From: Paraburkholderia sp. FT54
GTDB lineage: Bacteria; Pseudomonadota; Gammaproteobacteria; Burkholderiales; Burkholderiaceae
DNA length: 64,000 nt
Direction of reading: 5' to 3'
Assembly (NCBI RefSeq): GCF_031585635.1
Contig: NZ_CP134195.1
Coordinates: 2,976,001-3,040,000, forward strand
Shown: positions 31,267-54,795 of the stretch, piece after piece
Numbering within the stretch: position 1 is the first letter of the stretch
Layout: every line of letters begins with the position of its first letter
Notes under the pieces: generated by a model
What the model was told of the DNA's origin: nothing
What the model saw: only the letters and a program-made list of their open reading frames with translations
The model's database searches: none
Program-made: the position numbers and the translations under genes

Positions 31267-31271
31267 ACGCC

Positions 31272-36342: not shown

Positions 36343-36369
36343 GGTTGACTCGGGTGCGTCGGTTCATCG

Positions 36370-36684: not shown

Positions 36685-38625
<1,941 letters not shown>

Positions 38626-38805: not shown

Positions 38806-39207
38806 TTACTTCACGTGCACCGTGATCGTCTTGCTCATTTCCGGACCATACGAACGATGCGCGCCGTCACCGAATTGCAGCGTCAGCGTGTGGTCGCCCG
38901 GCGGCAGCGTCAGATCGGTTTCGGTCTGGCCTTTGCCGAAGTGCAGCGACTTGTCGTTCGCGGGGATGACCTCGCCCTTGGGCAGCGGCTTGCCGTCCAC
39001 CAGCAGATGATGGTGTCCCGTGCCCTCTGTCATCGTGCCGGCTGGCGCGATCTTCATGCCGTCGACGCCGAATACCACGTGGACGGGATTGCTGACGGTT
39101 GCGCCGTCCGCCGGCTGCACGAACGACACGCTTGCGGCCTGCGCCGCGCCGGATACGGCGAGCAATCCGGCCAATGCCGCACCGACCAACCATTTGTTTT
39201 TGAACAT
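38806..39207 (-). CDS. DUF4399 periplasmic protein
   Basis: A 133-residue secreted protein. Residues 1-24 are a signal peptide (cleavage AQA-AS). The mature part has VSFVQPADGATVSNPVHVVFGVDGM and the conserved GTGHHHLLVDG and LPPGDHTLTLQFGD segments of DUF4399. The His triplet could bind metal. It is the last intact host gene before the inversion breakpoint. Confidence 0.85.
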   Translation of the reverse strand: MFKNKWLVGAALAGLLAVSGAAQAASVSFVQPADGATVSNPVHVVFGVDGMKIAPAGTMTEGTGHHHLLVDGKPLPKGEVIPANDKSLHFGKGQTETDLTLPPGDHTLTLQFGDGAHRSYGPEMSKTITVHVK

Positions 39208-39365
39208 CGTTTTTCTCCTTTGTGGGAAACGAGAGTCATGCGCGGGCCATGTCGGCGACGACGGCGCCCTGGTGGCTAGGTCGATCGTCGCCGTTCATGC
39301 CGGGCGCCCCGGCGCGCCGGTCCAAAAGATCAGCTGCGGATCAGAGCATACACGCTGTGTGTGAC

Positions 39366-39371
39366 GGGATC
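39366..39371. other. Left breakpoint of the 12.9-kb inversion (GGGATC)
   Basis: GGGATC here is matched by GATCCC at 52264-52269. Left of it is host DNA; right of it the C-terminal part of a ParB-like gene begins mid-frame. Re-inverting 39372-52263 joins the two ParB-like pieces in frame. Confidence 0.7.
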
Positions 39372-39604
39372 TGGGCGATTACGACCTGCTTTCGTATGTG
39401 CTTTCGGTGAATCTCCTGCGCCGGCATCTGACGCCGGGCCAGCATGCGGCGATCGTCGCTGCTGCAACAAACTGGCTCGAGGCGCAGACGCACGGCGGCG
39501 ATCGTAAGTCAGCGCAAGTGGCAACGTTGCCGCTTGATACTATCGCCGACCGCGCGGCCAAGTCGGGCGCCAGCGAACGCACCCAACGCATGCCCGACCG
39601 CTGA
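39366..39604 (+). pseudogene. ParB-like phage protein, C-terminal fragment
   Basis: The open frame GATCTGGGCGATTACGACC reads DLGDYDLLSYVLSVNLLRRHL and continues through the helix-turn-helix region (LTPGQHAAIVAAATNW, LDTIADRAAKSGASERTQRM) of small phage ParB/Spo0J-like DNA-binding proteins. It has no start codon of its own. After RTQRM it hits a stop where related proteins continue with more helices, so the 3' end is deleted too. The missing N-terminus is at 52264-52462 on the other strand. Confidence 0.75.
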
Positions 39605-40406
39605 CAAGCCGAACAAGAGGAATGGTGCCTATTTGTTGTGGGTAGGCGGCCAGCGCGGCTACTTCAAAAACTTCGCAACCGACGACGACTATTGCGAATG
39701 GCGTTCAGATCGCCCAGTTTCGATTGCCGACCAACGAGCGATGGATGAACGCATCAAGCGCTTGCGCGATCAGGAATGCGCAGCGCGCGCCCAAGCGATT
39801 TCGGCGGCGCGGGCTCACTGGGAATCGCTGCCGATCCTCACTGATTGGCACGCATACATCGAGCGCAAGGGACTGACGCTGCAGGGATGCAAGGGCGTGC
39901 GCCTTGACGGCGACGATCTGGTTATCCCGATGTATCGCGGCGGCGCGCTAGTGAGCCTTCAAAACATTTCGATGGGCGGGGAAAAGCTTTATCGGAAGGG
40001 ATGTCCGACCCGGTGTGCTTCGTTCGTCATGTCTCGCGCGAAAAGTGCCGTCACCTGCTTCGTCGAAGGGTTCGCAACTGGTTTGGCGGTTTTTCAGATT
40101 GTGCCAAATTCATCGGTGGTCGTCTGCTTCGACGCACAAAACCTATTGGCGGTCGCGAAGGAAACCAAGATCCGCGGCATGGGCGTTGTGTGTGCCGATA
40201 ACGACTGGGAAACGCAACATGACAAGGGCATCAACAAGGGCGTCGAGAACGGCCGTAAGGCTGCCGAAATGATCGGTTGCGGTGTCTCGTTTCCGGAAGG
40301 TATCAAGGGCACCGATTGGGCCGATGCGTTGCAGGAGTGGGGCGATCGGGGTCCGGCGAAAGTCCGGATGCAGATCATGAAGGGCGCGAAGCTGGTTATG
40401 AAATGA
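39603..40406 (+). pseudogene. Phage TOPRIM primase, N-terminally truncated
   Basis: About 265 residues of a phage primase/helicase-associated protein. RNGAYLLW and GYFKNFATDDDYCEW correspond to the segment after the zinc finger. A TOPRIM domain follows with TCFVEGFATGLAVF, VVVCFDAQNLLAVA and GVVCADNDWETQ, ending in a deoxyribonucleotide-binding GTDWADALQ motif. The zinc-binding N-terminus is absent and the frame runs back into the ParB-like fragment, so a deletion fused the two. Confidence 0.72.
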
Positions 40407-40419
40407 AGGGAGGCGGTGC

Positions 40420-41388
40420 TTGGAGGTCAAAGACGATCCGCTTGAGCGTCAGACATTCATCAACACGACGCTCGGCGAAACCTACGAAGACCGTGGTGAT
40501 CGCGCGCTGAAAGAAGACGCATTGGTGGGCCGTTGCGAGGTTTGGCCAGCCGAAGTGCCGGACGGTGTGGCCGTCATAACTGTCGGCGTAGACACACAGG
40601 ATTATCGATTCGAGGTCGAGGTGATCGGATGGGGACGCAACGAAGAAAGCTGGTCGATCGCGCATGAGGTGATTGAGGGCGACATGGAAACGCCGGACCC
40701 GTGGAATCGTCTGGACGCGTTTCTCAAGCGTCTCTGGTATCGGGCCGATGGGCGTGGCTTCGAAGCAATGGCGGTGTGTATCGACTCGGGCGGACACCAC
40801 ACGCAGAAGGTTTATGACTTTTCGAAGGAGCGGCTCGGGCGTCGCGTGTGGGCGATCAAGGGCGAGTCGGCCGTTGGTGGAAAGCGCAATCCTGTGTGGC
40901 CGACGAAGAAGCCTAGTCGGCGCACGAAGGCCACGTTCCGACCAGTCATTCTCGGTGTGAATGCTGCCAAGGACGTGGTCCGCGAGCGGCTTCACAGAGA
41001 GGTGCCCGGGCCCGGGTACATGCACTTTCCGACTGACCGGGACATCAACTATTTTGCGCAGCTCACATCTGAGCGCGTGATCGTGAAGGTATCAGCCGGT
41101 CAGAAATTCCGCGTGTGGGATTTGCCGCCAGGGCGAGCCAATGAAGCGCTTGATTGCCGCGTCTACGGATATGCAGCGCTGTGCGGCTTATCGCATCTTG
41201 GCCTGAAACTTAATGCGACGGCTGACGAGGTAAAGGCAGCGCATACGTCATTGCCGTATGTCGCGCCGAAGCCTGAACCGGACACGCCAGTCGTAGAGGC
41301 GCCTATCGCCACAGCACCGCGTGGCCTGTCAATCACGGTCGCGGGGTCTGGCGGTTCAGGGCTCTCCAGAACAAGCCAACTTGCCTGA
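40420..41388 (+). pseudogene. Phage terminase large subunit (GpA-like), C-terminal nuclease half
   Basis: A 322-residue frame from a weak TTG start. It begins at the lambda GpA segment FINTTLGETYEDRGD and includes VGVDTQDYRFEVEVIGWGRNEE (nuclease DxQ..E region), CIDSGGHHTQKVYDF and GYMHFPTDRDINYFAQL. The N-terminal ATPase half, about 300 residues with Walker motifs, is missing, apparently by deletion against the primase remnant 13 bp upstream. A packaging motor without ATPase cannot work. Confidence 0.82.
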
Positions 41389-41400
41389 AAGGGACTTTTT

Positions 41401-41649
41401 ATGGGCGCTTACGACGGCCGCAGCCGAGCGGACCTGCAGGCGCAATTGACAGCGTTGCTGTCGGCATACGACCAACTGATTGCTGGTCAGCAGGTTGCGC
41501 AAGCCAGTTATTCGCAGAGTGACGGCGCGAAATCAGTCACTTACCGCGCGACCGATCTCGGATTGCTCGACGGCGCAATATCAGTGCTTCAGCAGAAGCT
41601 CGGCATCATCCGGCGCGCGCGCCGTCAAATTCGCTTCGTATATCGCTAA
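41401..41649 (+). CDS. gpW-like head-tail joining protein
   Basis: An 82-residue protein with two helices and a beta hairpin; the AQLTALLSAYDQLIAG start and GAISVLQQKLGIIRRARRQ end fit the lambda gpW family, which closes the portal after packaging. The stop codon overlaps the start of the portal gene (TAATG), the standard terL-gpW-portal order. Confidence 0.78.
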   Translation: MGAYDGRSRADLQAQLTALLSAYDQLIAGQQVAQASYSQSDGAKSVTYRATDLGLLDGAISVLQQKLGIIRRARRQIRFVYR

Positions 41650-41687
41650 TGGACAACCCCGTACAGATTCTTGGCCCAGACGGCAAC
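41649..41687 (+). pseudogene. Portal protein, N-terminal 13 codons
   Basis: The frame starts MDNPVQILGPDGN directly at the gpW stop. It ends at GGCAAC (41682-41687), where an inverted segment begins. Joining codon 13 to the minus-strand sequence starting at 42718 continues as ALPRSPNRASMLAGRSN, the normal body of a lambda-type portal. Confidence 0.75.
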
Positions 41688-42718
41688 CCTAAGGTTTCGC
41701 CCGGATACAGGTGGGTCATACCCACGTCACCAAGGCGCGTGCCCCGCTCTTTGTGATATGAGGACCGCTCCTGCTGGTACGCACTTACCTTGTTGCTTCC
41801 GGCAACCGCCTCTTCGACGAGCTCGCCATCGAAGGGGCTCTGGATATATGCGGCAAAGAACGCATTGACGATCGCGGCGTCGAGTTCCGTGCCGTCATAT
41901 TTGATCAGCATCTTGAAGCGCGTCAGCACCGGCGTGAGAAAACCAATACCGCGATGTTGCGCTGCTCTGTCGTGCTCAAAATGGTGAACGATGATCGGGC
42001 GCCCCCACTCCGTCTCGCGCAGGATGCGGTCCCAATGCACGGATTTGGCCGCACTGAACCAGTCGCCCTGGTGCGCGCGGCGAATGTAATATGCAACCGC
42101 TACACCGTCAGCATCGACTTCGACGCCGCCGCGCAGCACCTGCTGATCAAACTGCAACTGCGGATTCGACAGTCGGTCGGGATCAAGGATCTGCAGTGCC
42201 GTAGCGTACCGCGCGCGACCATAGCCGACACGCTCAGGCTTCCAGTGAAGCATCGAGAGGCTGTCGCCGTCGATCAACTGATGTCGGAAAGCCAACTGCA
42301 TCATTTGAGGGAACGTCTGCGCCCGCTGCGCATCGCAATAAAAGCCGCTGTCGTGCGCCCACGCGCGCCAGTTCGCTTCAACCTGCTGCCCCCACTCGTC
42401 TGCCCAGACGTGATCGAAAGCCTTGTTGCCGGTCAGCGCCTGCAGAGAACGATAGTCTGGCTTCGCGATCGGACGGAAGTCCGGGCCAATGACGTTGTCG
42501 ACGGTGCGCATTACCGCCGCGGTCGCCCATCCGTCGTTTCGGATCAAGTCCCGCGCACGCGAGACGATCCGGTCCCGATACATGTTGATCTCCCCATCGG
42601 GAGACCACAGGAACGGTTGCCAATCCTCTGTGTGCGCGCCGTACAGATCTGCGGCGTCGTAAGGCGCGTTGCTTCGACCTGCCAGCATGGACGCCCGATT
42701 CGGGCTTCGCGGCAACGC
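41688..42718 (-). pseudogene. Portal protein body, inverted and 3'-truncated
   Basis: About 343 codons of a lambda GpB-type portal (phage head vertex), read on the minus strand although terL and gpW are on plus. Recognisable segments: YDAADLYGAHTEDWQPFLWS, YRDRIVSRARDLIRNDGW, LAFRHQLIDGDSLSM, YYIRRAHQGDWF and HFEHDRAAQHRGIGFLTPVL. The C-terminal third of the portal is lost after YPGETLG. The right end is the palindrome GGCAACGCGTTGCC at 42711-42724. Confidence 0.82.
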
Positions 42719-42774
42719 GTTGCCGCCGTGCGGGGCGCTCCTGTTTCAAAAGTCCTGTGGGTTGAAAATCCTTT

Positions 42775-42822
42775 GTGCTACCATTGTGCTATCACGATTC
42801 AATGATAGTACGGTAGTAGCAC
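42775..42822. promoter_or_regulatory. Inverted repeat, likely Arc-type operator
   Basis: Two 20-base arms (42775-42794 beginning GTGCTACCA and 42803-42822 ending GTAGTAGCAC) are complementary at 16 of 20 positions with an 8-base spacer. They lie 28 bp before a ribbon-helix-helix regulator, so autorepression is likely. Confidence 0.6.
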
Positions 42823-42849
42823 ATAGGCAAGCACTCAGGAGAAATTTTT

Positions 42850-43065
42850 ATGGCTCGAACCGACCCTCAAGTGAACATCCGGATGCCGGTCGAATTGAAG
42901 GAAAAGCTCGAGGCAGCGACTTCTGAATCAAACCGCTCATTGAATGGCGAGATCATCGCGAGGCTTGAGGAATCATTTGAGCCGCGCGCAGCCGCCGTTG
43001 AGATTGGCGAAAAATCGATGGATGAAATAGAAGCCCGAATGCGACGGGCGATCAAAAACAAGTAG
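42850..43065 (+). CDS. Arc family ribbon-helix-helix DNA-binding protein
   Basis: A 71-residue RHH repressor: DPQVNIRMPVELKEKLEAAT forms the DNA-contacting strand and helix A, and NRSLNGEIIARLEESF is helix B, as in phage P22 Arc. The start has CAGGAGAAA upstream. Unlike its neighbours it is complete and has its own operator and terminator, so it may still be expressed. Confidence 0.85.
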   Translation: MARTDPQVNIRMPVELKEKLEAATSESNRSLNGEIIARLEESFEPRAAAVEIGEKSMDEIEARMRRAIKNK

Positions 43066-43072
43066 CACCAAG

Positions 43073-43095
43073 CCGCCTTAGAGGCGGTTTTTTTT
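43073..43095 (+). terminator. Rho-independent terminator behind the Arc-like gene
   Basis: Stem CCGCCT / AGGCGG with a three-base loop followed by eight T residues. Confidence 0.9.
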
Positions 43096-43118
43096 CGCCT
43101 CTACATAACGCGACCACC

Positions 43119-43142
43119 AGCCCTCTCCGGAGGGCTTTTTTT
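43119..43142 (+). terminator. Second Rho-independent terminator
   Basis: Stem AGCCCTC / GAGGGCT with a TCCG loop followed by T6. It lies 15 bp before the lysis-cassette gene and insulates it from upstream transcription. Confidence 0.85.
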
Positions 43143-43156
43143 ATTTCCGGGGATTC

Positions 43157-43516
43157 ATGGAAGCCAAAGACATGTTGACGATGCCCGATCCAGAGTTCCG
43201 CGCGCACGTTGTCGAATACCTCGTTGCGCACGATGCGGCGATTGCGGAGAACACCAAGGTCACTCGCAAGGTGGAGGCGACGGCCGATCAGGTCGCCGAG
43301 GACACCGCGCTCATTCGCAGCATTCTGGGCGACGTCGCCGCCGGCGCGCGGTTTATGTGTCGCTTAGCGGCCGCGTGGCGGTTCTTTCAAAAACAGGTCT
43401 TCCTGCCATTCGGGCTGCCATTGCTCGGGCTTTACGGGCTTTGGTACTACACGCAATTCCATCGCTTTCCCGCCTGGCTTGCTGACTGCTTCAAGTTCCT
43501 GATGGCGGTGCTATGA
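43157..43516 (+). CDS. Phage membrane protein upstream of endolysin (holin/antiholin candidate)
   Basis: A 119-residue protein with a charged helical N-terminal half (VARKVEATADQVAED-like coiled coil) and a hydrophobic segment FLPFGLPLLGLYGLWYYTQF near residues 80-100. I do not recognise the family. Its stop overlaps the endolysin start (ATGA), so it probably belongs to the lysis cassette. Confidence 0.65.
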   Translation: MEAKDMLTMPDPEFRAHVVEYLVAHDAAIAENTKVTRKVEATADQVAEDTALIRSILGDVAAGARFMCRLAAAWRFFQKQVFLPFGLPLLGLYGLWYYTQFHRFPAWLADCFKFLMAVL

Positions 43517-44064
43517 ACCTCACGCCGCAGATCATCGCGGCCGGCTGCGGCGCGGCGCCGTCGCGCGCGGCTCTGTTCGCACCGTTCATGCAACTGGCCT
43601 GTGACCACTACCAGATCAGCACGCCGCTCGACGTCGCTGCGTTTCTCGCACAGACCGGCCACGAGTCGCAGCGCTTGCTCTACACCCGGGAGCTCTGGGG
43701 CCCGACAGTCGCGCAGCGCGCGTATGAGCCGCCGTCCCAGAAAGCGAGCGATCTCGGCAACACGCAGCGCGGTGATGGCGAGCGGTTCTGCGGCCGTGGG
43801 CTTATTCAGGTCACCGGGCGCCGCAACTACACACTCGCCGCGGTCGGGCTTGACCTCGATTTGCTGAACCACCCCGAGTTGCTCGAACAGCCGGAGCATG
43901 CCGCGATGTCGGCCGCGTGGTTCTGGTTCAACAAGAAGCTGAGCGCGATCGCGCATGCGGGCGACTTCGTCACGCTGACCCGGCGCATCAACGGTGGCAC
44001 GAATGGGCTCGCCGACCGGCAGGCGCTTTATACCGCAGCGAAGAAAGCACTCGGCGTAGCCTGA
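43513..44064 (+). CDS. Endolysin, glycoside hydrolase family 19
   Basis: A 183-residue muramidase/chitinase-fold lysin. AAFLAQTGHESQRLLYTREL holds the catalytic glutamate (GHES) and FCGRGLIQVTGRRNY is the GH19 signature; a second acidic residue is near it. No signal peptide, so release needs a holin; candidates flank it. It appears intact. Confidence 0.9.
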   Translation: MNLTPQIIAAGCGAAPSRAALFAPFMQLACDHYQISTPLDVAAFLAQTGHESQRLLYTRELWGPTVAQRAYEPPSQKASDLGNTQRGDGERFCGRGLIQVTGRRNYTLAAVGLDLDLLNHPELLEQPEHAAMSAAWFWFNKKLSAIAHAGDFVTLTRRINGGTNGLADRQALYTAAKKALGVA

Positions 44065-44137
44065 CTACAAAACTCGCTCCGGAATATTCCGGAAATTATT
44101 CCTGCCACCTACGGGTGGCTTCTTTCGTTTACGGACC

Positions 44138-44623
44138 ATGACCGACGTTACCCAAATCCACGAAGAGAAAGAGACGTTGACCGTCGACGTCAACATCCCA
44201 GGCCACGAGCCGCGCAAGACGACGGCGCTTTTCGAGCGCACGCGCAAGGCGCTGATCGCGCGCGATGGCGGTCGCTGTTTTGTCTGCAATGCCACGGCGG
44301 AGGAGAGCGCTCATCCGCTCGAGGCGCACCACCACCCGATCGAGCGCTCGTTCGCCGAGATGATCGACTGGGAGCGGTTCAAGTTCGACGCGCAGGCCGG
44401 CGTGTGGGGCGACGCGATCAAGGCATTCGACTGGGACAACTTCACTGATTGGACCCAGTTCGTCGACGACATGACCGTCAACGGCATGTTGCTTTGCAAG
44501 GCGCACCACATCGGGAAAGACGACGGCATGCATGCGCTGCCGTTCCCGATCTGGATCGCGCAAAAGTACGGCAAAGAGGGCTATCAGTTCTCGGCTGCCG
44601 AAGTCATTCACCACGCAATGTAG
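44138..44623 (+). CDS. HNH-like phage protein
   Basis: A 161-residue protein with a zinc-finger-like HNH layout: GRCFVCNATAEESAHPLEAHHHPIE gives CxxC and the histidine cluster (in part FVCNATAEE and EAHHHPIE), and GMLLCKAHH gives the second CxxH. HNH nucleases often sit near cos/packaging genes, but here it follows the endolysin. Nuclease activity is inferred. Confidence 0.65.
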   Translation: MTDVTQIHEEKETLTVDVNIPGHEPRKTTALFERTRKALIARDGGRCFVCNATAEESAHPLEAHHHPIERSFAEMIDWERFKFDAQAGVWGDAIKAFDWDNFTDWTQFVDDMTVNGMLLCKAHHIGKDDGMHALPFPIWIAQKYGKEGYQFSAAEVIHHAM

Positions 44624-44631
44624 GAGCATTC

Positions 44632-44847
44632 ATGGCTCAAAACTCAGCAGTCGTCACCGGCGGCGTTGCGATCTCGACCGCCACCCTCATGCCCGCAGTC
44701 GAGTGGGCGCTAGCCTTGGCCTTTCACGTACCGGTACCGGCCAGTGTATCGGCGCTCGTCGCCGGCGTACTCGCATCCGGCGCGCATGCCGCACTGAACT
44801 ACATCGCCGCGCGCGTCGCCATGAAACAAGCCACTCCCGCGCAGTAA
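44632..44847 (+). CDS. Small membrane protein (holin candidate)
   Basis: A 71-residue protein with two hydrophobic helices (TGGVAISTATLMPAVEWALA and VSALVAGVLASGAHAALNYI) and a short basic tail (ARVAMKQ), a class II holin shape. AGGAG precedes the ATG. It lies between the endolysin region and a small lipoprotein that could be a spanin. Confidence 0.6.
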   Translation: MAQNSAVVTGGVAISTATLMPAVEWALALAFHVPVPASVSALVAGVLASGAHAALNYIAARVAMKQATPAQ

Positions 44848-44884
44848 CCTCCGCCGCGCCCGCGGCACTCTCTGGAAATCGCAC

Positions 44885-45313
44885 ATGAAACGCATTTTGC
44901 TGCTTGCGGCATGCATCGCCATGCTCGCCACTCTCTTTGGTTGCGCCACGGCTCCGCAGACACCCGCGCAGATCGCCGCGCGTGCGTGCCCGCTCGTGAC
45001 TGACGAACTCTCGACGCTTTCGCAAGCGGGCCTGTTCACCGGCGGCGCACAGGACACGCTGACGAGCAAGATCCAGCCGGCCGTCGACAAGGTATGCGTG
45101 GCGTCGTCGACTGTGACTCAGGTCAACCTGCAATCGCTATCAAAGGACGTCGCGCCGCTGCTCATCAACATAGTGAACGCCTCGCAGCTCGCGAAGGACG
45201 ACAAGTCGAAAGCCGTGCTTGTGATCGGCACCATTCAGGCGATGATCGACACCGCGCTCGCGACGGTCGTGCCGACGTCTACCGCGCCGGCATCGGGAGC
45301 GGTCGCATCGTGA
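44885..45313 (+). CDS. Phage lipoprotein
   Basis: A 142-residue lipoprotein with signal MKRILLLAACIAMLATLFGC (lipobox LFGC). The mature part is helical (LSTLSQAGLFTGGAQDTLTS, LQSLSKDVAPLLINIVN). Position in the lysis cassette suggests an outer-membrane lysis or exclusion role, but it is longer than usual o-spanins. The family is not recognised. Confidence 0.6.
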   Translation: MKRILLLAACIAMLATLFGCATAPQTPAQIAARACPLVTDELSTLSQAGLFTGGAQDTLTSKIQPAVDKVCVASSTVTQVNLQSLSKDVAPLLINIVNASQLAKDDKSKAVLVIGTIQAMIDTALATVVPTSTAPASGAVAS

Positions 45314-45690
45314 GTGAATTTCTGTCTGGCGATCTCGACGCCGATCTCATCAAGGAGTCGCCGCCGACGTGGCGGCTGAACGAGCCTGTCATCTATCAGT
45401 CGGATGTGGCGGGGCAGACGTTCACGGTGCCAGCTGGTTTCGTCTCCGATCTCGCTTCAGTGCCGCGCTGGCCGGTGATCTACTTGCTTGCAGGTGGGAC
45501 CGCCAACGAAGCGAGCGTCGTTCATGACTGGCTGTACTCCACGCACGCCGTGCCTCGCGCTGTCGCTGATGCCGTGCTTCGCGAGGCCTCAGCGGTAACC
45601 GGTGTGCCGGCGTGGCGGCGGTGGCTCATGTGGATGGGCGTACGGATCGGTGGCGGTGGTAACCATTGGAACGGACCGACCCCGGCTTGA
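45310..45690 (+). CDS. DUF1353 family phage protein
   Basis: A 126-residue protein with the DUF1353 hallmarks: FTVPAGFVSDLASVPRW, VVHDWLYSTHAVPRAVAD (metal-binding-like HDxLY) and a C-terminal hydrophobic helix. It occurs near lysis genes in many phages and resembles peptidoglycan-processing accessory proteins. The GTG start overlaps the preceding stop by three bases. Confidence 0.8.
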   Translation: MSEFLSGDLDADLIKESPPTWRLNEPVIYQSDVAGQTFTVPAGFVSDLASVPRWPVIYLLAGGTANEASVVHDWLYSTHAVPRAVADAVLREASAVTGVPAWRRWLMWMGVRIGGGGNHWNGPTPA

Positions 45691-45720
45691 TGTGGCGTCG
45701 ACGTCACCGCAGCGCTAGGC

Positions 45721-46557
45721 TTATGCGTCGCTATGAGTCCTGATGTCAGCGAGGAATTCGTTTATTACTGACTGCACTTGATCCTTCATGATATTGGCGC
45801 GCTTTCTGGCTTGAATTTCAAAATCGTCGCCATCGTCATCTACTTCGAGTTCTCGCCGAAGGGCGACTGAGGCCGGAACAACTAAGTCGATGATCGGGGA
45901 GAGTTCTGCAACTGTGAATTTTAGATAGTCTGCATGGAGTTCGTTTTTTTTGTTCGAAAGGTCAGCACGCTTGTCAGCAAGACTTTTCGCGAATTCCTGC
46001 TGCTGTTTGAAGGACCGTGATAGCACACCGAACGCGATGTCGTCGGTTTTGACAGCTTCGGTGAATGACCGCATGGCTGACAGAAGCCTTTTTATCTCGG
46101 TCTGTGAATCTTCGTACACAGCGTTTATGCTGCGAATTTCGGCTGCAAGGTTCTGAATCGGGAGTGCTTTGACCGACGCCCGTGTGAAGAGGCTCATAAA
46201 CGCTGCCATAACCTGAGTGATAGCGTTGACAGACTCGTTTGTGCAGATAAGTTGGACCTTTGCAGCCAAAGCTAGAAACGGTTGGATGCCCGCGGCAGGG
46301 TTGACGGAAGCTATGTCTATCTCCGGTAGCTTCCCAGTGTGTGCGTTAGCGGTCGAAAATTCGGCGACGAATTCGAGGTAGACGTCCCTGCGCAGGTCGG
46401 CCTTCCTTTGCCTCGCCTTCTCCCTCTCGTCATGACCGAACTGCTTGACCAGGCGATCCGTATTGCCTCGATTAGAAAGCCAAACACCGCCAAGAGTTAT
46501 GCATGACGCAACTACACCGGACCAAATCACGTCAGGCACACCAAGAAATTCAGCCAT
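45721..46557 (-). CDS. Membrane-anchored coiled-coil protein of unknown function
   Basis: A 278-residue protein with one N-terminal membrane helix (IWSGVVASCITLGGVWLSNR) followed by a long charged helical region (RLVKQFGHDEREKARQRKAD, QQQEFAKSLADKRADLSNKK). The start has GAGGCGAT upstream. It is visibly lower in GC than its neighbours, faces the late genes and lies between lysis and integration modules, the usual spot for an acquired cargo (moron) gene. No family recognised; a superinfection-exclusion or defence role is possible but unproven. Confidence 0.55.
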   Translation of the reverse strand: MAEFLGVPDVIWSGVVASCITLGGVWLSNRGNTDRLVKQFGHDEREKARQRKADLRRDVYLEFVAEFSTANAHTGKLPEIDIASVNPAAGIQPFLALAAKVQLICTNESVNAITQVMAAFMSLFTRASVKALPIQNLAAEIRSINAVYEDSQTEIKRLLSAMRSFTEAVKTDDIAFGVLSRSFKQQQEFAKSLADKRADLSNKKNELHADYLKFTVAELSPIIDLVVPASVALRRELEVDDDGDDFEIQARKRANIMKDQVQSVINEFLADIRTHSDA

Positions 46558-46689
46558 AGAATCGCCTCGTATTTTTTTGAATTTTATCCGACGCTGGGTA
46601 TCGCGCTTAAACATTCTTTCCCCCGCTGGCGCACTTCAATCTGTCATCTGAGGTGCGGCAGCGGCTCCATCAACTGGAGCGTCGATCTA

Positions 46690-46710
46690 AGCCCAGCCTC
46701 TCGCTGGGCT
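46690..46710. terminator. Rho-independent terminator-like hairpin
   Basis: Stem AGCCCAGC / GCTGGGCT with a CTCTC loop followed by TTTCGCTTT on the plus strand. It separates the xis-like gene from the coiled-coil gene. Confidence 0.6.
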
Positions 46711-46730
46711 TTTCGCTTTCTGCGACTGGC

Positions 46731-46943
46731 TCAACGACCGCCACTTTCTACCCACCGCTCGAATCCCTTCATAGAGATAAAGATGCCCCCATCGGGTGAG
46801 CGCAGGTACTCCCGACCTTCAACCCATTTCCCGTCTTCGATCTTCCTGCGAATCGCTTTCTGGCTTAGGCCAGTAATTATGGCGGCCAGTGCGATCGTGA
46901 CGTACGGGGCGGTCTTTACTTGCAAAGCTAATTCGTTGGGCAC
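46731..46943 (-). CDS. Excisionase-like DNA-binding protein
   Basis: A 70-residue protein from a GTG start (GGAGAG about 6 bases upstream). ITGLSQKAIRRKIEDGKWVEGREYLRSPDGGIFI (in part AIRRKIEDGKWVEG and YLRSPDGGIFI) is the layout of phage excisionases that bind next to att sites. It is in the integrase module, the most likely directionality factor for the integrase at 48226. Confidence 0.7.
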   Translation of the reverse strand: MPNELALQVKTAPYVTIALAAIITGLSQKAIRRKIEDGKWVEGREYLRSPDGGIFISMKGFERWVESGGR

Positions 46944-47095
46944 TGAGTCTCTCCGTATCGATTCGCATGGCGAGGTCACGACGAATCCCTGTCAACTGCT
47001 CGCATTCCTTCTGCGCGGCCTCTGGTCACTCATCGATAAATAGTGCGAGACCGGTCGCGACCCAGCCGGGCCGGGTGCTCTCCGTTTGCCTTCCA
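46944..47095 (-). other. Degenerate small coding remnant
   Basis: On the minus strand MSDQ (about 47036) changes frame into EAAQKECEQLTGIRRDLAMR, which runs without a stop into the xis leader. This looks like a small early phage gene broken by a frameshift, but the evidence is limited. Confidence 0.3.
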
Positions 47096-47227
47096 CTAGA
47101 TGCGGCTCGGTTCAGCGAGGTGGTCTGCGCGCAGCCATTCTGCAGTGCCAGCAATCGCTACCAGTTCGGCTACAACGAGATCGCAGAGCAACTCGGCTCG
47201 CGCGTCTTCTCGTCTGCCCAGGTTCAT
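47096..47227 (-). CDS. Small phage protein, 43 residues
   Basis: MNLGRREDARAELLCDLVVA followed by ELVAIAGTAEWLRADHL. The ATG overlaps the stop of the preceding small gene (ATGA), a strong sign of a real coupled gene in this compact module. Function unknown. Confidence 0.5.
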   Translation of the reverse strand: MNLGRREDARAELLCDLVVAELVAIAGTAEWLRADHLAEPSRI

Positions 47228-47459
47228 TTGCGCATGTACTTAGACCCAAGCGCACCGGCCCAATACTTCTTCCCGTCCTTGTCCATCGACCACGGGTCGG
47301 AATGTTCGCGGTGACTGCGCGCAACGTAGTCATCTCCTGTAGCGCTCAGTCGCACGCGCTCTTCGCGGCGATGCCGACGATGCCACTTTGCCTTGCCGGG
47401 GCCTCCGTCTCAGCTGTAGTGATCCCCAGTATCGGAATTTTGCGTCGGCTACGACTCAT
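47224..47459 (-). pseudogene. Small MSRSRRK-type prophage protein, frameshifted
   Basis: Frame 1 gives MSRSRRKIPILGITTAETEA and stops soon after. The -1 frame from the same point gives KAKWHRRHRREERVRLSATG then DPWSMDKDGKKYWAGA, matching the usual ending of this small family of uncharacterised prophage proteins. One base is missing in a CCCC run near 47396-47400. Confidence 0.55.
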
Positions 47460-47889
47460 CTCGGACCTCGTCCGCCCGGCGGGCATCCTCATAGTCGCCA
47501 ATGAACTCGCCCAGCGCGACAAGCAATCCCGCGAGTGGCCCGCCTTCGCTCGACTCCGGAAGATCAAGGAGTGCGTTCAGCACCGACACAGCACCGTCGT
47601 ACTCTGCCTCATTCGCGATCGGGTGCAGCAAAGCTTTCGCTTTTTGGACAATCAGATTTCGGTTCTCGTCACTCATCGTCCCCTCCTGGAACCAGCGTTG
47701 CTCCCAGACAGAGAGCCTGTCTTTTTTTAGATGTCGCCGGGGGTTGCCGCACATCCAGCAACTGCAGGGCGTCGGAGTGTCGACGACTTTGCCGAGTTCC
47801 TCCGACGTTAGTCGACGGCCCCACCAGTAGTAGCTGCGATTCCTTCTGATTCGCGCCCGGTCCGCCCGGCGCCGCGCTGTACCTGCCAT
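47449..47889 (-). CDS. Fused small zinc-motif protein and HigA-like N-terminal domain
   Basis: A 146-residue open frame. The first 70 residues match a small protein with the CSCWMCGNPRR motif. The rest, from MSDENRNLIVQKAKALLHPI, resembles the N-terminal region of HigA-type antitoxins (EAEYDGAVSVLNALLDLPES, LLVALGEFIGDYEDA). A strong AGGAGGGG lies just before that internal ATG (47676), so the second part can be made alone as a 75-residue protein. Translational fusion by loss of a stop codon is likely. Confidence 0.55.
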   Translation of the reverse strand: MAGTARRRADRARIRRNRSYYWWGRRLTSEELGKVVDTPTPCSCWMCGNPRRHLKKDRLSVWEQRWFQEGTMSDENRNLIVQKAKALLHPIANEAEYDGAVSVLNALLDLPESSEGGPLAGLLVALGEFIGDYEDARRADEVRDES

Positions 47890-47962
47890 GTCACACCTCA
47901 GTTTCGAGAGCTGAATGTGCGAAAGCCCGCTCGCGGCGGGCAATGGACGAATACTAGCAGGT

Positions 47963-48229
47963 TCAGATCCGAACGCCCATCTGTTCAAGTTCTTTTATCG
48001 CTTCCGCTCGGCGTGCATCGATGTAGTCGGCCAGATCCTGAATGTGAACTCCCTTGGCACTCTTTGCTGATCGCTCCATGCGTATCATCGGCAATTTCAC
48101 CTCGCCAATGTTTATCTTGCGAATAAGCTTGTCAGTGCTGAGGTGTGGGAAATAATCACGACATACGAGATCGATAGGGACGACAGCCGTTGCGTCATAC
48201 TGGGCCAGAAGCAGAAACACTGTTTTCAT
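47963..48229 (-). CDS. Pyocin activator PrtN family protein
   Basis: An 88-residue protein with MKTVFLLLAQYDATAVVPID, KLIRKINIGEVKLPMIRME and AKGVHIQDLADYIDARRAEA, the PrtN-family pattern. PrtN activates pyocin genes in Pseudomonas; integrase-linked relatives probably act as regulators or excision factors. The ATG overlaps the integrase stop (ATGA), so they are cotranscribed. Confidence 0.82.
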   Translation of the reverse strand: MKTVFLLLAQYDATAVVPIDLVCRDYFPHLSTDKLIRKINIGEVKLPMIRMERSAKSAKGVHIQDLADYIDARRAEAIKELEQMGVRI

Positions 48230-49431
48230 GAGCGTGTTTGGTCGGAGAGATAATCCGCCCACTGCTGCATCATCCTGCGGCGCTCAGGCAGGTACTCCGC
48301 GTGCACATAAGCAGCCGTTACCTGATTCCGTTCCGCATGCGCCAGTTGTCGATCGACGACGTCGCGGCTGTAACCGATCTCGCGCAATACCGTCGCCGCC
48401 AGCCCACGGAACCCGTGGCCGGTCATCCGGGATTTGTATCCCATGCGATACAGGGCGAAGAGCATGGTGTTGTTGGAAATGGGGCCGCGGCTCCTACCCT
48501 GAACGCTGTAGAAGACGTGTTTCTCGGCGCCGTTGAGTTTCCTCAATTCCGCAAGGACTTCGAGCGCCTGTTCCGAAAGAGGCACGATGTGCGGATCGCG
48601 CATCTTCATGCGCTCGGCCGGAATCCGCCATTCGCGAGCCTTTTCGTCGATCTCTGTCCAATCGGCGTTGATCATTTCGGTCGTGCGCACGAAAGTCAAA
48701 GCCATGAATCGGAGCGCCAGGCGCGTCACGACGTCGCCCTGATAGCCGGCGATATCGCGCATGAGTTGCGGGATCTCGATCGGCTTGACGCGCGCCATGT
48801 GCTTGACGCCGGCGCCTTTCTTCAGCACGGTTTCAGCGTCAATGTCGGCGGCCGGGTTGCGTGAGCATCGTCCGGTCATGATCCCGTACTGAAAAACGGC
48901 GCGGGAGCGCTGAAGGACGCGCTTGGCCGTTTCGCGCACGCCGCGGGCCTCAATCGTCCGGATGATCTCCAGCATGTGCGGCGCTTCGATGTCTCCGATC
49001 GGTTTGGCGCCGATTTTTGGGAACGCGTCGACTTCCAGCGAATTGATCACTTTGCCGGCGTAAACTTCGGTCCAGCCAGCTTTCTGCGACTCGAACCACT
49101 CGCGCGCCATAACTTCAAACGTTGACGACGCCTCGATCGCGCGAACGCGCTTCACTTCCTTTTTTTGCTCAGACGGGTCTTTGCCGGCGGTCAGCAGTTG
49201 CCGTGCAGCCAGACACGCTTTCCGCGCATCCGCCAGGCTGACTTCGGGGTAAACACCGAACGATGCCAGTTTTTCCTTCCCGTCAAAACGATACTTCATG
49301 CGCCAATAACGCGAGCCGTTCGGCATCACCTGGACATAGAGCCCCTTGCCATCTGCGAGTCGATAGGGCTGTTCTGCGGGCTTGGCCTTGCGCACCTGAA
49401 GCTCGCTTAGCGGCGCGATTTGCTTGGGCAT
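48226..49431 (-). CDS. int: Prophage tyrosine integrase (P4 type, DUF4102)
   Basis: A 401-residue site-specific recombinase. The N-terminal DUF4102 domain (LSELQVRKAKPAEQPYRLAD, KGLYVQVMPNGSRYWRMKYR) is followed by the catalytic domain with arginine I in TFVRTTEM, HGFRGLA (H-x-x-R) and the tyrosine in AAYVHAEY. The start MPKQIAPLSE is used. It lies 169 bp from the 3' end of tRNA-Arg with arm-type repeats between, so it should recombine there. Confidence 0.93.
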   Translation of the reverse strand: MPKQIAPLSELQVRKAKPAEQPYRLADGKGLYVQVMPNGSRYWRMKYRFDGKEKLASFGVYPEVSLADARKACLAARQLLTAGKDPSEQKKEVKRVRAIEASSTFEVMAREWFESQKAGWTEVYAGKVINSLEVDAFPKIGAKPIGDIEAPHMLEIIRTIEARGVRETAKRVLQRSRAVFQYGIMTGRCSRNPAADIDAETVLKKGAGVKHMARVKPIEIPQLMRDIAGYQGDVVTRLALRFMALTFVRTTEMINADWTEIDEKAREWRIPAERMKMRDPHIVPLSEQALEVLAELRKLNGAEKHVFYSVQGRSRGPISNNTMLFALYRMGYKSRMTGHGFRGLAATVLREIGYSRDVVDRQLAHAERNQVTAAYVHAEYLPERRRMMQQWADYLSDQTRS

Positions 49432-49435
49432 GATG

Positions 49436-49488
49436 TTGGGGGTATCAAATTTGGGGGTATTCGGCGATACACCCACCGATACCCCCAA
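49436..49488. repeat. Integrase arm-type repeats (TTGGGGGTAT)
   Basis: Two plus-strand copies (TTGGGGGTATC at 49436 and TTGGGGGTATT at 49451) face two minus-strand copies (TTGGGGGTATC ending 49488 and TGGGTGTATC ending 49475). The minus pair has the same spacing and near-identical sequence as the plus-strand pair at 62283-62303. Confidence 0.7.
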
Positions 49489-49599
49489 CCATTCTGGTTT
49501 GTGTTGGGAAGGTATGGGCAATGATGGCAGCAAAAAGCCCCGCAGCGCAAGGCATACGGGGCTTTTCTAGGCAAATCTGGGTGTTGCTGGGAAGCTAGT

Positions 49600-49674
49600 T
49601 GGTCCCCCTGACAGGAATCGAACCTGTATCTAGCGCTTAGGAGGCACTTGTTCTATCCATTGAACTACAGGGAG
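49600..49674 (-). tRNA. tRNA-Arg (anticodon CCU), prophage attachment site
   Basis: A complete cloverleaf of 75 nt with encoded CCA. Acceptor CTCCCTG/CAGGGGG with one G.U pair, D stem GTTC/GAAC, anticodon stem AGTGC/GCGCT with loop CTCCTAA (anticodon CCT), T stem ACAGG/CCTGT with TTCGATT. Its 3' end faces the integrase, the standard attB. Confidence 0.92.
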
Positions 49675-49731
49675 ATGGACCTTTGCAATGAGACGACCGA
49701 CCCCGTTCTGCTATCGCCTTGGGCTTGTCCC

Positions 49732-49920
49732 GTGGGCGTTTCGAGACGGGTAATCACAGCTTCAATCCTGCCAGTCGGCCCTCGTTGGCGCGCCAAGGTG
49801 CGCCAACGAGGGCACAGAGTATAGCAAAAACGTTCAGAACGAAAGGCGCTGCCGAGGCTTGGGTAAGAGAAAAAGAAGTCGAGATCGACGAGAGACAGAA
49901 CGCAATCCGTCGCCGGGACG
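49732..49920 (+). pseudogene. Degenerate second integrase, N-terminal fragment
   Basis: From a GTG the frame reads VSRRVITASILPVGPRWRAK then VRQRGHRV and stops; the next frame continues AKTFRTKGAAEAWVREKEVE. Together these match the N-terminus of another phage integrase family (x-GSWRAQVRRKGH-x-SKTFRTKAEAEAW). It is frameshifted and cut at 49920, where the GlxA gene ends. It also contains the 13-bp hairpin CCCTCGTTGGCGC/GCGCCAACGAGGG (49779-49812). Confidence 0.5.
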
Positions 49921-50883
49921 CTACCGCATTTCGGCGCGAAGCTCTCGCACCCCCCGCCCGAGCCTCTTACGCAGCAAAGTCCGCAATGTCGCCGAGTCGG
50001 CGTAGCCAACCTCGCTCGCAATGGTCTCGAGGTCGTAGCCAATCGAGACGAGGTTCTGCGCCCGTTCGATGCGCAGATCCTGGAAGAACGCCAGTGGCGA
50101 CTTACCAAGCACGGCTTCGGTACGGCGCTGCAAAGTGCGCGGTCCGACGGACAACGCAGCCGCTGCCGCCTGAAGCGAAAACCCCGAGGAAAGATTGTCG
50201 CGAGCCCATCGCTCGAATTGCGCGACCAACGGGTCGGCGTGGGCGAGGTAATCGGGAATGATGTATTCGGCCTGGGATGAACGCTTGTCAATGAGCATGA
50301 AGCGGGCAACGAGCGTCGCAAGTTCGGGACTTGCCTGACGCAGCAACCATAGCGCGAGGTCGAGATGGCCCATCGCGGAACCCGCCGTCACTACGCGATC
50401 CGAGGCGACGACCATGCGTGAATCATCCAGATTGACGGCCGGATAGCGTTGCCGGAAGAAAGGCGCCAGTGACCACGTGGTGGTTGCCTCGCGATCATCC
50501 AGAAGCCCGGCTTCGGCCAGCAGGAAAGTACCGATACAGGCGGCCGCGACGCCGACGCCGTCAGCGTGCCACGTACGCAGGTGCGCCATCGCGTCGCGCG
50601 CGTCTGGACCCTCCAGCGCCTCGATCAGGCGCTCCGGTTGCCTGACATTCGGCGCGGGCACCACCACCCAATCCGGGCGGCGAACGGTGCTTGCCGGTTC
50701 GACTGAAGTCGACAAGCCATGCGCAGTACGGATGCGTCGGCGCACGCCAACGAGCCTTACATCGAAGGGTGGTGCGGCGAATCCCTGGGCGGCGGCCAGT
50801 TCGTTGGCCGTCGCAAAAGTATCCAGTAGTACCGTGAGCCCGGTGTCGAACAGGCCGTCAAGCGCGAAGATGACCAATCGCAT
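49921..50883 (-). CDS. GlxA family transcriptional regulator
   Basis: A 320-residue regulator. Residues 1-180 form a DJ-1/PfpI-like amidotransferase fold (VGVAAACIGTFLLAEAGLLD with the nucleophile-elbow cysteine). The C-terminal 100 residues are an AraC HTH (FSLQAAAAALSVGPRTLQRR and LETIASEVGYADSATLRTLL). Such proteins control amine or amino-acid catabolism. It is divergent from a GNAT gene that may be its target. Confidence 0.9.
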   Translation of the reverse strand: MRLVIFALDGLFDTGLTVLLDTFATANELAAAQGFAAPPFDVRLVGVRRRIRTAHGLSTSVEPASTVRRPDWVVVPAPNVRQPERLIEALEGPDARDAMAHLRTWHADGVGVAAACIGTFLLAEAGLLDDREATTTWSLAPFFRQRYPAVNLDDSRMVVASDRVVTAGSAMGHLDLALWLLRQASPELATLVARFMLIDKRSSQAEYIIPDYLAHADPLVAQFERWARDNLSSGFSLQAAAAALSVGPRTLQRRTEAVLGKSPLAFFQDLRIERAQNLVSIGYDLETIASEVGYADSATLRTLLRKRLGRGVRELRAEMR

Positions 50884-51032
50884 GTCGCAAATAACGCCAT
50901 TAATGTCATTTGCGACTATAGCCTCGCTCCGATCGGACGTCTAGACTGCGTAGCAATGCGGCCAGGATAATGCGCTGGCTGAACGTTCAGCCAATCCACC
51001 AACACACAGCTGCGCTTGCAAAAGGAGAAAGT

Positions 51033-51758
51033 ATGAGTGGTTCAATAGAAGCTGACCTGGACCGTCCGATCTGGGTGGCCCTCACAACGAAGCAGGCGCA
51101 CCTTGGATATGGAGAGGCGCTTGCCCGTCGATACCACCCCGACGTGGCGCCCTTTGCTGCTTTGGCACGCGAAACGCCCGCGGCATACCAGACGCTTCTT
51201 CAGCTTCTGTTGCCTCACGAGCAGGCAGTCCTGCTATCCAATGAATCGACCGGTCCAATCGACGGGCTTCAAAAGACGGACGTGGGCGTGATCCATCAAA
51301 TGATCGCCCGGCACCGCGACGCAGGGAGCGCGGACGACCACGAGGTAAGCCGCCTGGGTGACGCGGATGTGAAAGACATGCTCGACCTGGTTCAAAAGAC
51401 CAAGCCCGGCCCTTTCGGCAAGCGAACTCGCGAGATGGGCAACTACATTGGGATCCGCGAGCGGGGGCGTCTTATTGCCATGGCGGGCGAACGGATGTGC
51501 GTCGACGGATACGTCGAGATCAGCGCCGTTTGCGTAGATGAAGATTATCGCGGAAATGGTCTAGCTGGCCGGCTCGTAAAAGTCTTGCGCAGAGAAATTG
51601 GGCAACGAGGGGCAACGCCGTTTCTCCACGTGTTCAGTGACAACATTTCGGCGATTGGATTGTATGAGCGTCTTGGCTTCGAATTGCGTCGCACGTTTCA
51701 CCTTATCCGCGTCGCACATGCTGATTCGCTTTCGACTTCAGTTCCTAAGTCCATTTAG
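51033..51758 (+). CDS. GNAT family N-acetyltransferase
   Basis: A 241-residue protein whose C-terminal 90 residues carry the GNAT fold: AVCVDEDYRGNGLAGRLVKV (acetyl-CoA motif RGNGLA) and FSDNISAIGLYERLGFELRR. The N-terminal half (PDVAPFAALARETPAAYQTL) resembles FR47-like acetyltransferases. AAAGGAG precedes the ATG. The substrate is unknown. Confidence 0.88.
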   Translation: MSGSIEADLDRPIWVALTTKQAHLGYGEALARRYHPDVAPFAALARETPAAYQTLLQLLLPHEQAVLLSNESTGPIDGLQKTDVGVIHQMIARHRDAGSADDHEVSRLGDADVKDMLDLVQKTKPGPFGKRTREMGNYIGIRERGRLIAMAGERMCVDGYVEISAVCVDEDYRGNGLAGRLVKVLRREIGQRGATPFLHVFSDNISAIGLYERLGFELRRTFHLIRVAHADSLSTSVPKSI

Positions 51759-51820
51759 CGAAAGGTCGAACTGGGACGAGGGCCGCGCGAAAAGCGCCGA
51801 AGCCCGTCCCACAAAGCAAA

Positions 51821-51849
51821 CGGCCCAGCAGTCAAAGCCTGCTGGGCCG
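51821..51849. terminator. Bidirectional terminator hairpin
   Basis: An 11-bp stem CGGCCCAGCAG / CTGCTGGGCCG with a 7-base loop, between the convergent GNAT and rubredoxin genes. The minus-strand side is followed by TTTGCTTTG. Confidence 0.75.
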
Positions 51850-51911
51850 TGCGAACCGTCGGCGCGCGCAAACAGATCAACGCGGCGCTCCGGCGACCGG
51901 ATAAAGCCGCC

Positions 51912-52103
51912 TCAGAACTCCACCACCGCAAACTCAGCCTTGCCCACGTCGCACAGCGGGCAGCGCCAGTCTTCGGGAATTGCGGCGAAGCGCGTGCCCG
52001 GCGCAATGCCTTCCTCGGGCAGACCTTCTTCCTCGTTGTAGATCCAGCCGCAAATCAGGCAGACCCAGCTCTTATATTCAGTCACTTCAATTACTTCGCT
52101 CAC
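51912..52103 (-). CDS. Rubredoxin
   Basis: A 63-residue iron protein with both iron-binding CxxC knuckles (CLICGW and CPLCDVGK) and the classic EDWRCPLC segment. It passes single electrons. It lies in the host block carried inside the 12.9-kb inversion; its upstream side runs to the right-hand breakpoint 161 bp away. Confidence 0.95.
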   Translation of the reverse strand: MSEVIEVTEYKSWVCLICGWIYNEEEGLPEEGIAPGTRFAAIPEDWRCPLCDVGKAEFAVVEF

Positions 52104-52263
52104 GACGCACTCTTCTCTGGTTCAATGCAATGATCCGCCCAGTCTGCCCCTTTTTTGGGCACGGCGGCGACCCGCAATATTACCGGAATTTGTCAATTCG
52201 ACCGAAAACTACCAACGCGGCAGAGCCGCGCAGCGCCCGGCACAACGCCAAACTCGCTCGACG

Positions 52264-52462
52264 GATCCCTTTCGGCAATCAGTGGGGAGATGCCAAGCTC
52301 AATGCAGGCCCGATACCGATTGCCACCGTCCAAGATTTTGCCGTCGTGAATGACAATCGGCTGAAGTTGGCCGTTGGTCTTGATGTCCGCCTTCAGCGCG
52401 TCGAATTCGGTACCTTCGAGGCGCGGGAAAAGCGTGCACAGAGGATGAAGTTCGAGTTCCAT
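52264..52462 (-). pseudogene. ParB-like phage protein, N-terminal fragment, ending at right inversion breakpoint
   Basis: MELELHPLCTLFPRLEGTEF, DIKTNGQLQPIVIHDGKILD and GGNRYRACIELGISPLIAE are the ParB/Spo0J N-terminal domain of a small phage protein. At GGGATC (52269-52264 on the minus strand) the homology stops and host DNA is read as PSSEFGVV up to a stop at 52193. The rest of the gene is at 39366-39604 on the plus strand, in the matching frame (AGG GAT CTG). Confidence 0.78.
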
Positions 52463-52572: not shown

Positions 52573-52809
52573 TTAGGCAGCCTGCTTTTCAGCCATCGTG
52601 GCGCGATAACCTATCGGATCGGCCAGCCAGAGGTGTACTTCGGCCGCATAGTAGGCGGCACAGGTCTTGGAAAAGCGGACTGGCTGGGGAGCCCTGCCGG
52701 CGAGAACCAGCTTGCGCCAAGTCTCGCGGCCGACAGGCAGGAATGGCGCTATCTGGCGCCACTTGAGCAGGCCGACCTCAGGGAGGACCGGCGCGTTGGG
52801 ACTTTGCAT
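52573..52809 (-). CDS. AlpA-like small DNA-binding protein
   Basis: A 78-residue protein with a winged-helix/excisionase layout: LLKWRQIAPFLPVGRETWRK (helix-turn-helix), APQPVRFSKTCAAYYAAEVH and a WLADPIGY end, typical of AlpA-type phage regulators. It starts the operon leading to the ParB-like, primase and packaging genes in the ancestral order. Confidence 0.68.
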   Translation of the reverse strand: MQSPNAPVLPEVGLLKWRQIAPFLPVGRETWRKLVLAGRAPQPVRFSKTCAAYYAAEVHLWLADPIGYRATMAEKQAA

Positions 52810-54104: not shown

Positions 54105-54326
54105 TCACTCGTATGCCGGGAAAATCTCTTTTGCCGCCCGCATCGCTCCTAGCAAGTGATAGGCAAGCTTGTCGACAGCCGCCTTGACCTCCGCGTACGT
54201 CGGTTTGTTGGGCTCCAGAAACTGGGGGCCATCGATGACCGGAGCCAACGGAGCGCCCTCGGTCGGACGTTCGCGGCGCCGGCCCTTCCGGAGAGGCCGC
54301 GGTGGCATGTGCAGGATGTCAGCCAT
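54105..54326 (-). CDS. Hypothetical prophage protein, 73 residues
   Basis: Starts MADILHMPPRPLRKGRRRER, basic and proline-rich, then a helical AEVKAAVDKLAYHLLGAMRA. The ATG lies inside the end of the upstream gene (8-bp overlap), so it belongs to the compact early operon. Family not recognised. Confidence 0.55.
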   Translation of the reverse strand: MADILHMPPRPLRKGRRRERPTEGAPLAPVIDGPQFLEPNKPTYAEVKAAVDKLAYHLLGAMRAAKEIFPAYE

Positions 54327-54795
54327 GTTCAGCCTCATGCACAAGGTCCAACAGGTTCTCGCCGAGTTGATGCAGATCGTCGCGAAGACCAGTCAGTGTG
54401 AACTTCACTGGCAGTTGATCGGCCGCGTCGTCGGGAAGCGCCTCGACCATGAATGCCACCACAGCTTGAATCCTGAATGCAAACATGCTCCGGGCGGTCA
54501 CTAGATCGTCGATGCGCTTGATGACCTCCCTGGATTTACCGTCCTCACGAACTGCGCTAACGGCCTCGTCGACACCAGCGTTGAACTCCTTTTCTACCTC
54601 TTCGACGAGATCCCCAAACTCCTCGTCGGACTGACCGACAGCCCGCGGCATACGCTTGGAGAGCCAGTGGCTCATCAACTCAGAATAGACGTGGGTCACA
54701 GCGTCGACGTCGCCGAAGATTGCACGGCCGTCGACGCGGGACAGCACGAGCGCTTCGTCTTTTGGTAAAGACGCGAGATTGACGGGCTTAGACAT
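54319..54795 (-). CDS. Hypothetical prophage protein, 158 residues
   Basis: Acidic helical protein (SDEEFGDLVEEVEKEFNAGV, VIKRIDDLVTARSMFAFRIQ). No motif recognised. It overlaps the genes on both sides by 8 bp, which supports coding. Confidence 0.6.
   Translation of the reverse strand: MSKPVNLASLPKDEALVLSRVDGRAIFGDVDAVTHVYSELMSHWLSKRMPRAVGQSDEEFGDLVEEVEKEFNAGVDEAVSAVREDGKSREVIKRIDDLVTARSMFAFRIQAVVAFMVEALPDDAADQLPVKFTLTGLRDDLHQLGENLLDLVHEAEHG

What the first reader, a model, noticed from the sequence alone, without database searches (positions are those of the whole stretch)
39366..52462. A ParB-like phage gene split on opposite strands marks a 12.9-kb inversion
The N-terminal domain (MELELHPLCTLF to PLIAE) is on the minus strand at 52264-52462 and the C-terminal domain (DLGDYDLLSYVLS to RTQRM) on the plus strand at 39366-39604. 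Both end at the 6-mer GGGATC in inverted orientation. Re-inverting 39372-52263 joins them in the same frame (GCC GAA AGG GAT CTG GGC). Seen directly: both halves, the shared 6-mer and the frame. Inferred: that they were one gene.
Basis: partly seen in the sequence, partly recalled or inferred. Interest (0 to 1): 0.85.

Follow-up and report, generated by a model that had tools for sequence, protein, structure and literature searches.

The report
Prophage gene split by chromosomal inversion
A 12.9-kb stretch of a soil bacterium's chromosome, carrying a tRNA gene and the end of a decaying virus genome, has flipped around and cut a viral gene in two; sister genomes show the unflipped order, so this is a clear but ordinary case of genome rearrangement.

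Summary
Confirmed. The pieces at 52264-52462 (-) and 39368-39604 (+) are halves of one ParB-like phage gene. Searched apart, both match PHROG 21315 in consecutive stretches, and each of the 120 listed proteins (of 1807 hits) holds both in order. In four intact prophage loci both halves lie in line on one strand, with the window's phage neighbours on the same sides. These are divergent neighbours 205-408 bp apart in 110 of 114 genus genomes with a strong DUF4399 match; in the window 12.7 kb separates them. G134 carries a related prophage in the same tRNA-Arg, uninverted. Only 6 bp are shared across the break; random breaks share that much in 0.27% of trials. This fits illegitimate recombination. 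The att copies now face each other, so excision should be blocked (inferred). The remnant also shows deletions and probably a second small inversion in its portal gene. Ordinary in kind. Sequencing reads were not available to exclude misassembly.

The parts
52264..52462 (-). N-terminal half of the ParB-like phage gene
   Evidence: ORF; Pfam ParB_N 19.6 bits, E 9.4e-4, below the 26.3 cut-off; PHROG 21315 positions 15-75; in order in 120 of 120 listed relatives
39368..39604 (+). C-side half of the same gene, itself truncated at its 3' end
   Evidence: frame read; PHROG 21315 positions 83-147; 120 of 120
39366..39371 (+). GGGATC at the left junction
52264..52269 (-). GGGATC at the right junction, inverted
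39372..52263 (.). inverted segment, 12,892 bp (ends ambiguous within 6 bp)
38806..39207 (-). DUF4399 gene, chromosomal, left of the left junction
   Evidence: PF14347 E 2.3e-37; survey
51912..52103 (-). rubredoxin gene, chromosomal, now inverted
   Evidence: PF00301 E 3.4e-22; survey
50970..51758 (+). GNAT acetyltransferase gene inside the segment
   Evidence: Pfam; not matched by DNA at this place in the compared relatives
49921..50883 (-). AraC-type regulator gene inside the segment
   Evidence: Pfam
49600..49674 (-). tRNA-Arg(CCT), the integration site; 49600-49621 is the 22-base att core
   Evidence: ARAGORN
48226..49533 (-). tyrosine integrase of the prophage
   Evidence: Pfam PF13356, PF22022, PF00589; 88% identical in G134 next to its tRNA-Arg
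43513..44064 (+). endolysin (lysis module)
   Evidence: PHROG 181 E 1.4e-61
41606..42715 (-). portal protein body, on the strand opposite to the terminase; the ORF's last residues lie beyond the homology
   Evidence: PF05136 E 9.8e-76, residues 26-346
41649..41687 (+). probable first codons of the same portal gene, left on the + strand
   Evidence: read, compared by eye with the Serratia phage portal start
40420..41388 (+). terminase large subunit (gpA), N-terminally truncated
   Evidence: PHROG 15 positions 662-957 of 1330
39444..40406 (+). primase fragment running on from the ParB piece
   Evidence: PHROG 2249 positions 86-320 of 802; Toprim_3
52573..52809 (-). small phage gene next to the N half, same neighbour in intact prophages
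   Evidence: 55-60% identical beside ParB in G134, P. phenoliruptrix and L062, 34% in G024
54319..55138 (-). two further phage genes on the N side
   Evidence: one or both found on the N side in G134, P. phenoliruptrix and L062

Best explanation
A prophage integrated in tRNA-Arg(CCT) just downstream of the rubredoxin gene. Later one end-to-end reciprocal inversion of 12.9 kb joined a break in the DUF4399-rubredoxin intergene to a break inside the prophage's ParB-like gene. It flipped rubredoxin, two accessory genes, tRNA-Arg, the integrase and the prophage's lysis-to-primase remnant, and left the two gene halves on opposite strands. Shown: the halves belong to one gene, the ancestral order at both breakpoints, and exact junctions with 6 bp of shared sequence. 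Inferred: that the exchange was illegitimate (microhomology-mediated or break-repair) rather than catalysed by a dedicated recombinase, and that it blocks normal excision because the two att copies are now inverted.
For: One gene. In 7 of 120 relatives the pieces are collinear with no gap (the codon shared by both pieces counted once); in 112 the relative is two residues shorter at the junction and in 1 five shorter. Neighbours: in P. phenoliruptrix LMG 22037 (L060; L044 is the same DNA and L063 lies within it), L062, G134 and G024 the gene sits between homologues of the 52573 gene on one side and the primase on the other. Chromosomal breakpoint: DUF4399 and rubredoxin divergent, 205-408 bp apart (median 307), in 110 of 114; the two window flanks sum to 324 bp (read coordinates). 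Aligned apart to relatives' intergenes the flanks meet with 3-9 bp overlap in 6 of 7 genomes; in G022 the right-hand alignment stops 22 bases short. G134: window 39368 matches L061 11629 and window 52258 matches L061 11620 in opposite sense, chromosomal flank 93% identical over 8.4 kb, tRNA-Arg and integrase next to them, ParB in one frame. Att: 22 identical bases at the tRNA and at G000:C1:3104560-3104581, 96-bp repeat at 89.6%, inverted; in G134 the weaker counterpart (75.7% over 107) is on the same strand as its tRNA.
Against: Reads were not available, so a misassembly cannot be fully excluded, although no repeat beyond 6 bp spans the break. No second strain of the species was available. 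In the phage collection the N piece hit 16 records and the C piece one other record only, so no single phage record there showed both. The Pfam ParB_N score is below its cut-off. Only one event was examined, so the microhomology argument rests on 0.27% under a simple random-break model.
Confidence: 0.92

Rival explanations
1. Site-specific inversion: a recombinase, for example the prophage or island integrase, recognised the intergene and the phage gene as pseudo-att sites and flipped the segment.
For: Two tyrosine integrases are nearby, and a 6-bp shared core is the size of some overlap regions (recalled, no call).
Against: The att core read does not occur at either junction; nothing longer than 6 bp spans the break. 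None of 110 other ordinary DUF4399-rubredoxin loci shows this flip.
Confidence: 0.05
2. Assembly error: the contig was joined wrongly and the cell carries the uninverted order.
For: No reads were seen; one genome per species was available.
Against: Both junctions are reciprocal and exact, with no repeat longer than 6 bp to mislead an assembler; the replicon is one 4.2-Mb contig of a 5-contig genome.
Confidence: 0.03
3. No inversion: two unrelated mobile elements each carry a ParB-like fragment.
For: The left element has its own integrase and tRNA, and the phage collection gives no record hit by both pieces.
Against: Collinearity in 120 of 120 relatives, shared neighbours, and the displaced DUF4399-rubredoxin pair.
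Confidence: 0.01

Closest known systems
Prophage-associated chromosomal inversions, e.g. pneumococcal lytA (PMC8637289, passages seen) and gonococcal prophage/repeat inversions (PMC3454330, passages seen)
   Same: A prophage supplies one breakpoint of a chromosomal inversion; prophage sequence is parted between places.
   Different: Those inversions run between sizeable repeated genes or repeat elements; here only 6 bp are shared and one end is a chromosomal intergene.
PHROG 21315 / ParB N-terminal domain-containing phage proteins
   Same: Both halves match in order.
   Different: The gene here is split and lacks the C-terminal part of its relatives.
tRNA-Arg(CCT)-integrated prophages of Paraburkholderia, e.g. 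G134
   Same: Same tRNA, integrase 88% identical, same flanking genes.
   Different: Here inverted, heavily deleted, and followed by about 66 kb of further inserted DNA before the far att copy.

Membership tests
Inversion by illegitimate (microhomology) recombination | Reciprocal exchange with ancestral order visible in relatives | tested here: met
Inversion by illegitimate (microhomology) recombination | Only a few shared bases, no long inverted repeat at the two breaks | tested here: met
   Exactly 6 bp across the break; best inverted match elsewhere in the two 606-bp flanks is 10 bp, E 0.27, and not at the break
Inversion by illegitimate (microhomology) recombination | No insertion sequence at the breaks | tested here: inconclusive
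   No transposase among the neighbouring proteins scanned with Pfam, but not every ORF was scanned
Programmed invertible segment (phase variation) | Inverted repeats of ten or more bases at the ends | tested here: not met
Programmed invertible segment (phase variation) | Both orientations found in the population | not testable with these tools
   No reads and no other strain; junction strings gave 0 hits in viral contigs
ParB-like phage proteins (PHROG 21315, ParB_N) | Profile match of both halves in order | tested here: met
ParB-like phage proteins (PHROG 21315, ParB_N) | Pfam ParB_N gathering score | tested here: not met
   19.6 bits against 26.3 for the 66-residue N piece alone; a cut piece may fall short for that reason
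ParB-like phage proteins (PHROG 21315, ParB_N) | DNA binding or partition activity | not testable with these tools
   No experiment

The most novel reading that the evidence does not exclude
The DUF4399-rubredoxin-tRNA-Arg block is a recurrent inversion spot in the genus (the window, and separately the G073/G082/G100 lineage), and in the window the flip turned the element's direct att repeats into inverted ones, so that integrase action could now flip about 79 kb back and forth instead of excising it: a trapped element made into a large switch.
Probability: 0.06. Interest if true: 0.55.

Novelty: new member of a known kind. Interest (0 to 1): 0.27.

Why it matters
It is an unusually complete example, with both breakpoints placed to within 6 bp, of how a prophage can become trapped by an ordinary chromosomal inversion, and it warns annotators that the two half-genes, the odd-facing tRNA and the displaced rubredoxin are one event. 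It opens no long-standing question.

Tried and rejected
Two elements with separate ParB fragments: rejected. Programmed inversion: no end repeats. An att copy inside the window beyond 52264: none found by the tRNA-side search; the far copy lies 64.6 kb past the window's end. Same inverted junctions in viral contigs: 0 hits each. Whether the G073/G082/G100 rearrangement used the same base of the intergene could not be told, because that intergene no longer aligns. The 76 integrase relatives in viral contigs were tested for further window genes in 11 loci only: one (L088) shares the lysis-side order, the rest give little beyond the integrase. Literature: searches were listings; passages were seen of PMC8637289 and PMC3454330, no paper in full. 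No report of this locus was noticed in those four listings, which is not proof that none exists.

Full report
The observation. The two pieces are present as stated. The C piece reads in frame from 39368 to a stop at 39602-39604. GGGATC stands at 39366-39371 on the plus strand and at 52264-52269 on the minus strand; the match across the break is exactly 6 bp, with a mismatch on either side. An early note of mine gave 52258-52263 for the second copy, which was wrong (note, corrected).

One gene. I searched the halves apart. PHROG 21315 is matched by the N half at positions 15-75 and the C half at 83-147. Pfam ParB_N matches the N half at 19.6 bits, below its cut-off of 26.3. With the intact protein of G024 as query, 1807 proteins passed E 1e-3 and 120 were listed; by BLASTP both window pieces match all 120, in order, with a junction that is gapless in 7, two residues shorter in 112 and five shorter in 1. 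Best cases: P0006 and P0008, where N 1-66 matches residues 1-66 and C 1-78 matches 66-143. Among 144 genomes of the genus 7 matched P0008 at E 1e-20: five in one open frame that spans both halves (G134, G024, G114, G085, G076), G000 at two places on opposite strands, and G061 with only the later part. Against: in the annotated phage collection the N piece hit 16 records and the C piece one, a different record.

Neighbours. In P. phenoliruptrix LMG 22037 (L060; L044 is identical and L063 is contained in it), in L062 and in G134 the gene lies on one strand with homologues of window genes 52573 and 54319 and/or 54788 on the N side and of the primase on the C side; in G024 the 52573 homologue (34%) and the primase (31%) flank it. 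In L045 (Burkholderia sp.) terminase and portal follow on the same strand.

The other breakpoint. DUF4399 (38806-39207) and rubredoxin (51912-52103) both read minus in the window, 12,707 bp apart. In 114 of 144 genus genomes with a DUF4399 match at E 1e-45, 110 have the pair divergent, 205-408 bp apart, median 307; the four others are G000, G073, G082 and G100. The 30 genomes without such a match were not counted. The window flanks add up to 324 bp. Aligned apart to the intergene of seven relatives, the two flanks meet with an overlap of 3-9 bp in six; in G022 one alignment stops short. Rubredoxin is followed on the same strand by tRNA-Arg(CCT) in 136 of 140; in the other four they are on different contigs, and four of 144 genomes lack the tRNA string.

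The uninverted sister. G134 (its 408,644-base contig has the length given for P0007, Paraburkholderia sp. BL25I1N1, an inference) matches window 31065-39368 at 93%, then directly window 52258-51804 in the other sense, then tRNA-Arg, the integrase (88%), a prophage with the ParB gene in one frame, homologues of window 58022 and 59659, and then the chromosome that in the window's genome lies beyond the far att copy. Its att repeats are on one strand (75.7% over 107 bp), about 40 kb apart.

The element today. The 22-base core at the tRNA recurs at G000:C1:3104560-3104581 in inverted sense, within a 96-bp repeat of 89.6%. Before the flip the two would have been direct repeats about 86 kb apart (arithmetic from these coordinates). 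A second integrase sits beside the far copy, so more than one element has used this site. Inferred: recombination between the copies would now invert about 79 kb, not excise it.

Decay. Compared with G024 (ParB, a helicase-like ORF, primase) and with PHROG profiles the window's ParB piece runs straight into an internal primase stretch, and primase runs into the C-terminal part of the terminase: deletions. The portal body reads minus although terminase reads plus; in Serratia phage BZS1 both read plus. Its first codons seem to remain on the plus strand at 41649-41687, and CGGCAAC is present at 41681-41687 (+) and 42719-42725 (-), which suggests a second inversion of about 1.03 kb. That comparison of the portal start was by eye.

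Mechanism. With 6 bp at the break (0.27% by chance), no longer repeat there, and no transposase in the neighbouring proteins scanned, I take illegitimate recombination as most likely. A recombinase at pseudo-sites is not excluded. Verdict: real, explained, ordinary in kind; new as an instance.

Noticed in passing
window 41649-42725: The portal gene also seems split on opposite strands, with CGGCAAC at both ends: a probable second inversion of about 1.03 kb in the same remnant.
   Followed up: partly
L064, L065, L036 (G082, G100, G073): The rubredoxin-tRNA-Arg block is inverted between DUF4399 and the downstream chromosome in these three genomes, without this prophage gene order; G100 also has a downstream stretch between DUF4399 and the tRNA. 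A separate, apparently older rearrangement at the same block.
   Followed up: partly
G000:C1:3036525-3104581 (window from about 60525, then L040-L043): About 68 kb of further DNA lies between the 59659 gene and the far att copy, absent from that place in G134, with a second integrase and an IS91-type transposase.
   Followed up: partly
window 49921-51758: An AraC-type regulator and a GNAT gene sit between rubredoxin and tRNA-Arg; the GNAT gene has a 78% DNA match at another chromosome place in G073 (L037), so the pair looks acquired.
   Followed up: partly
(G020): G020 has the rubredoxin and tRNA-Arg region twice on one contig, about 3.7 Mb apart.
   Followed up: no
window 61027-62172: A protease-like protein with a weak Nal1_C match (E 3.8e-10) in the inserted DNA.
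   Followed up: no
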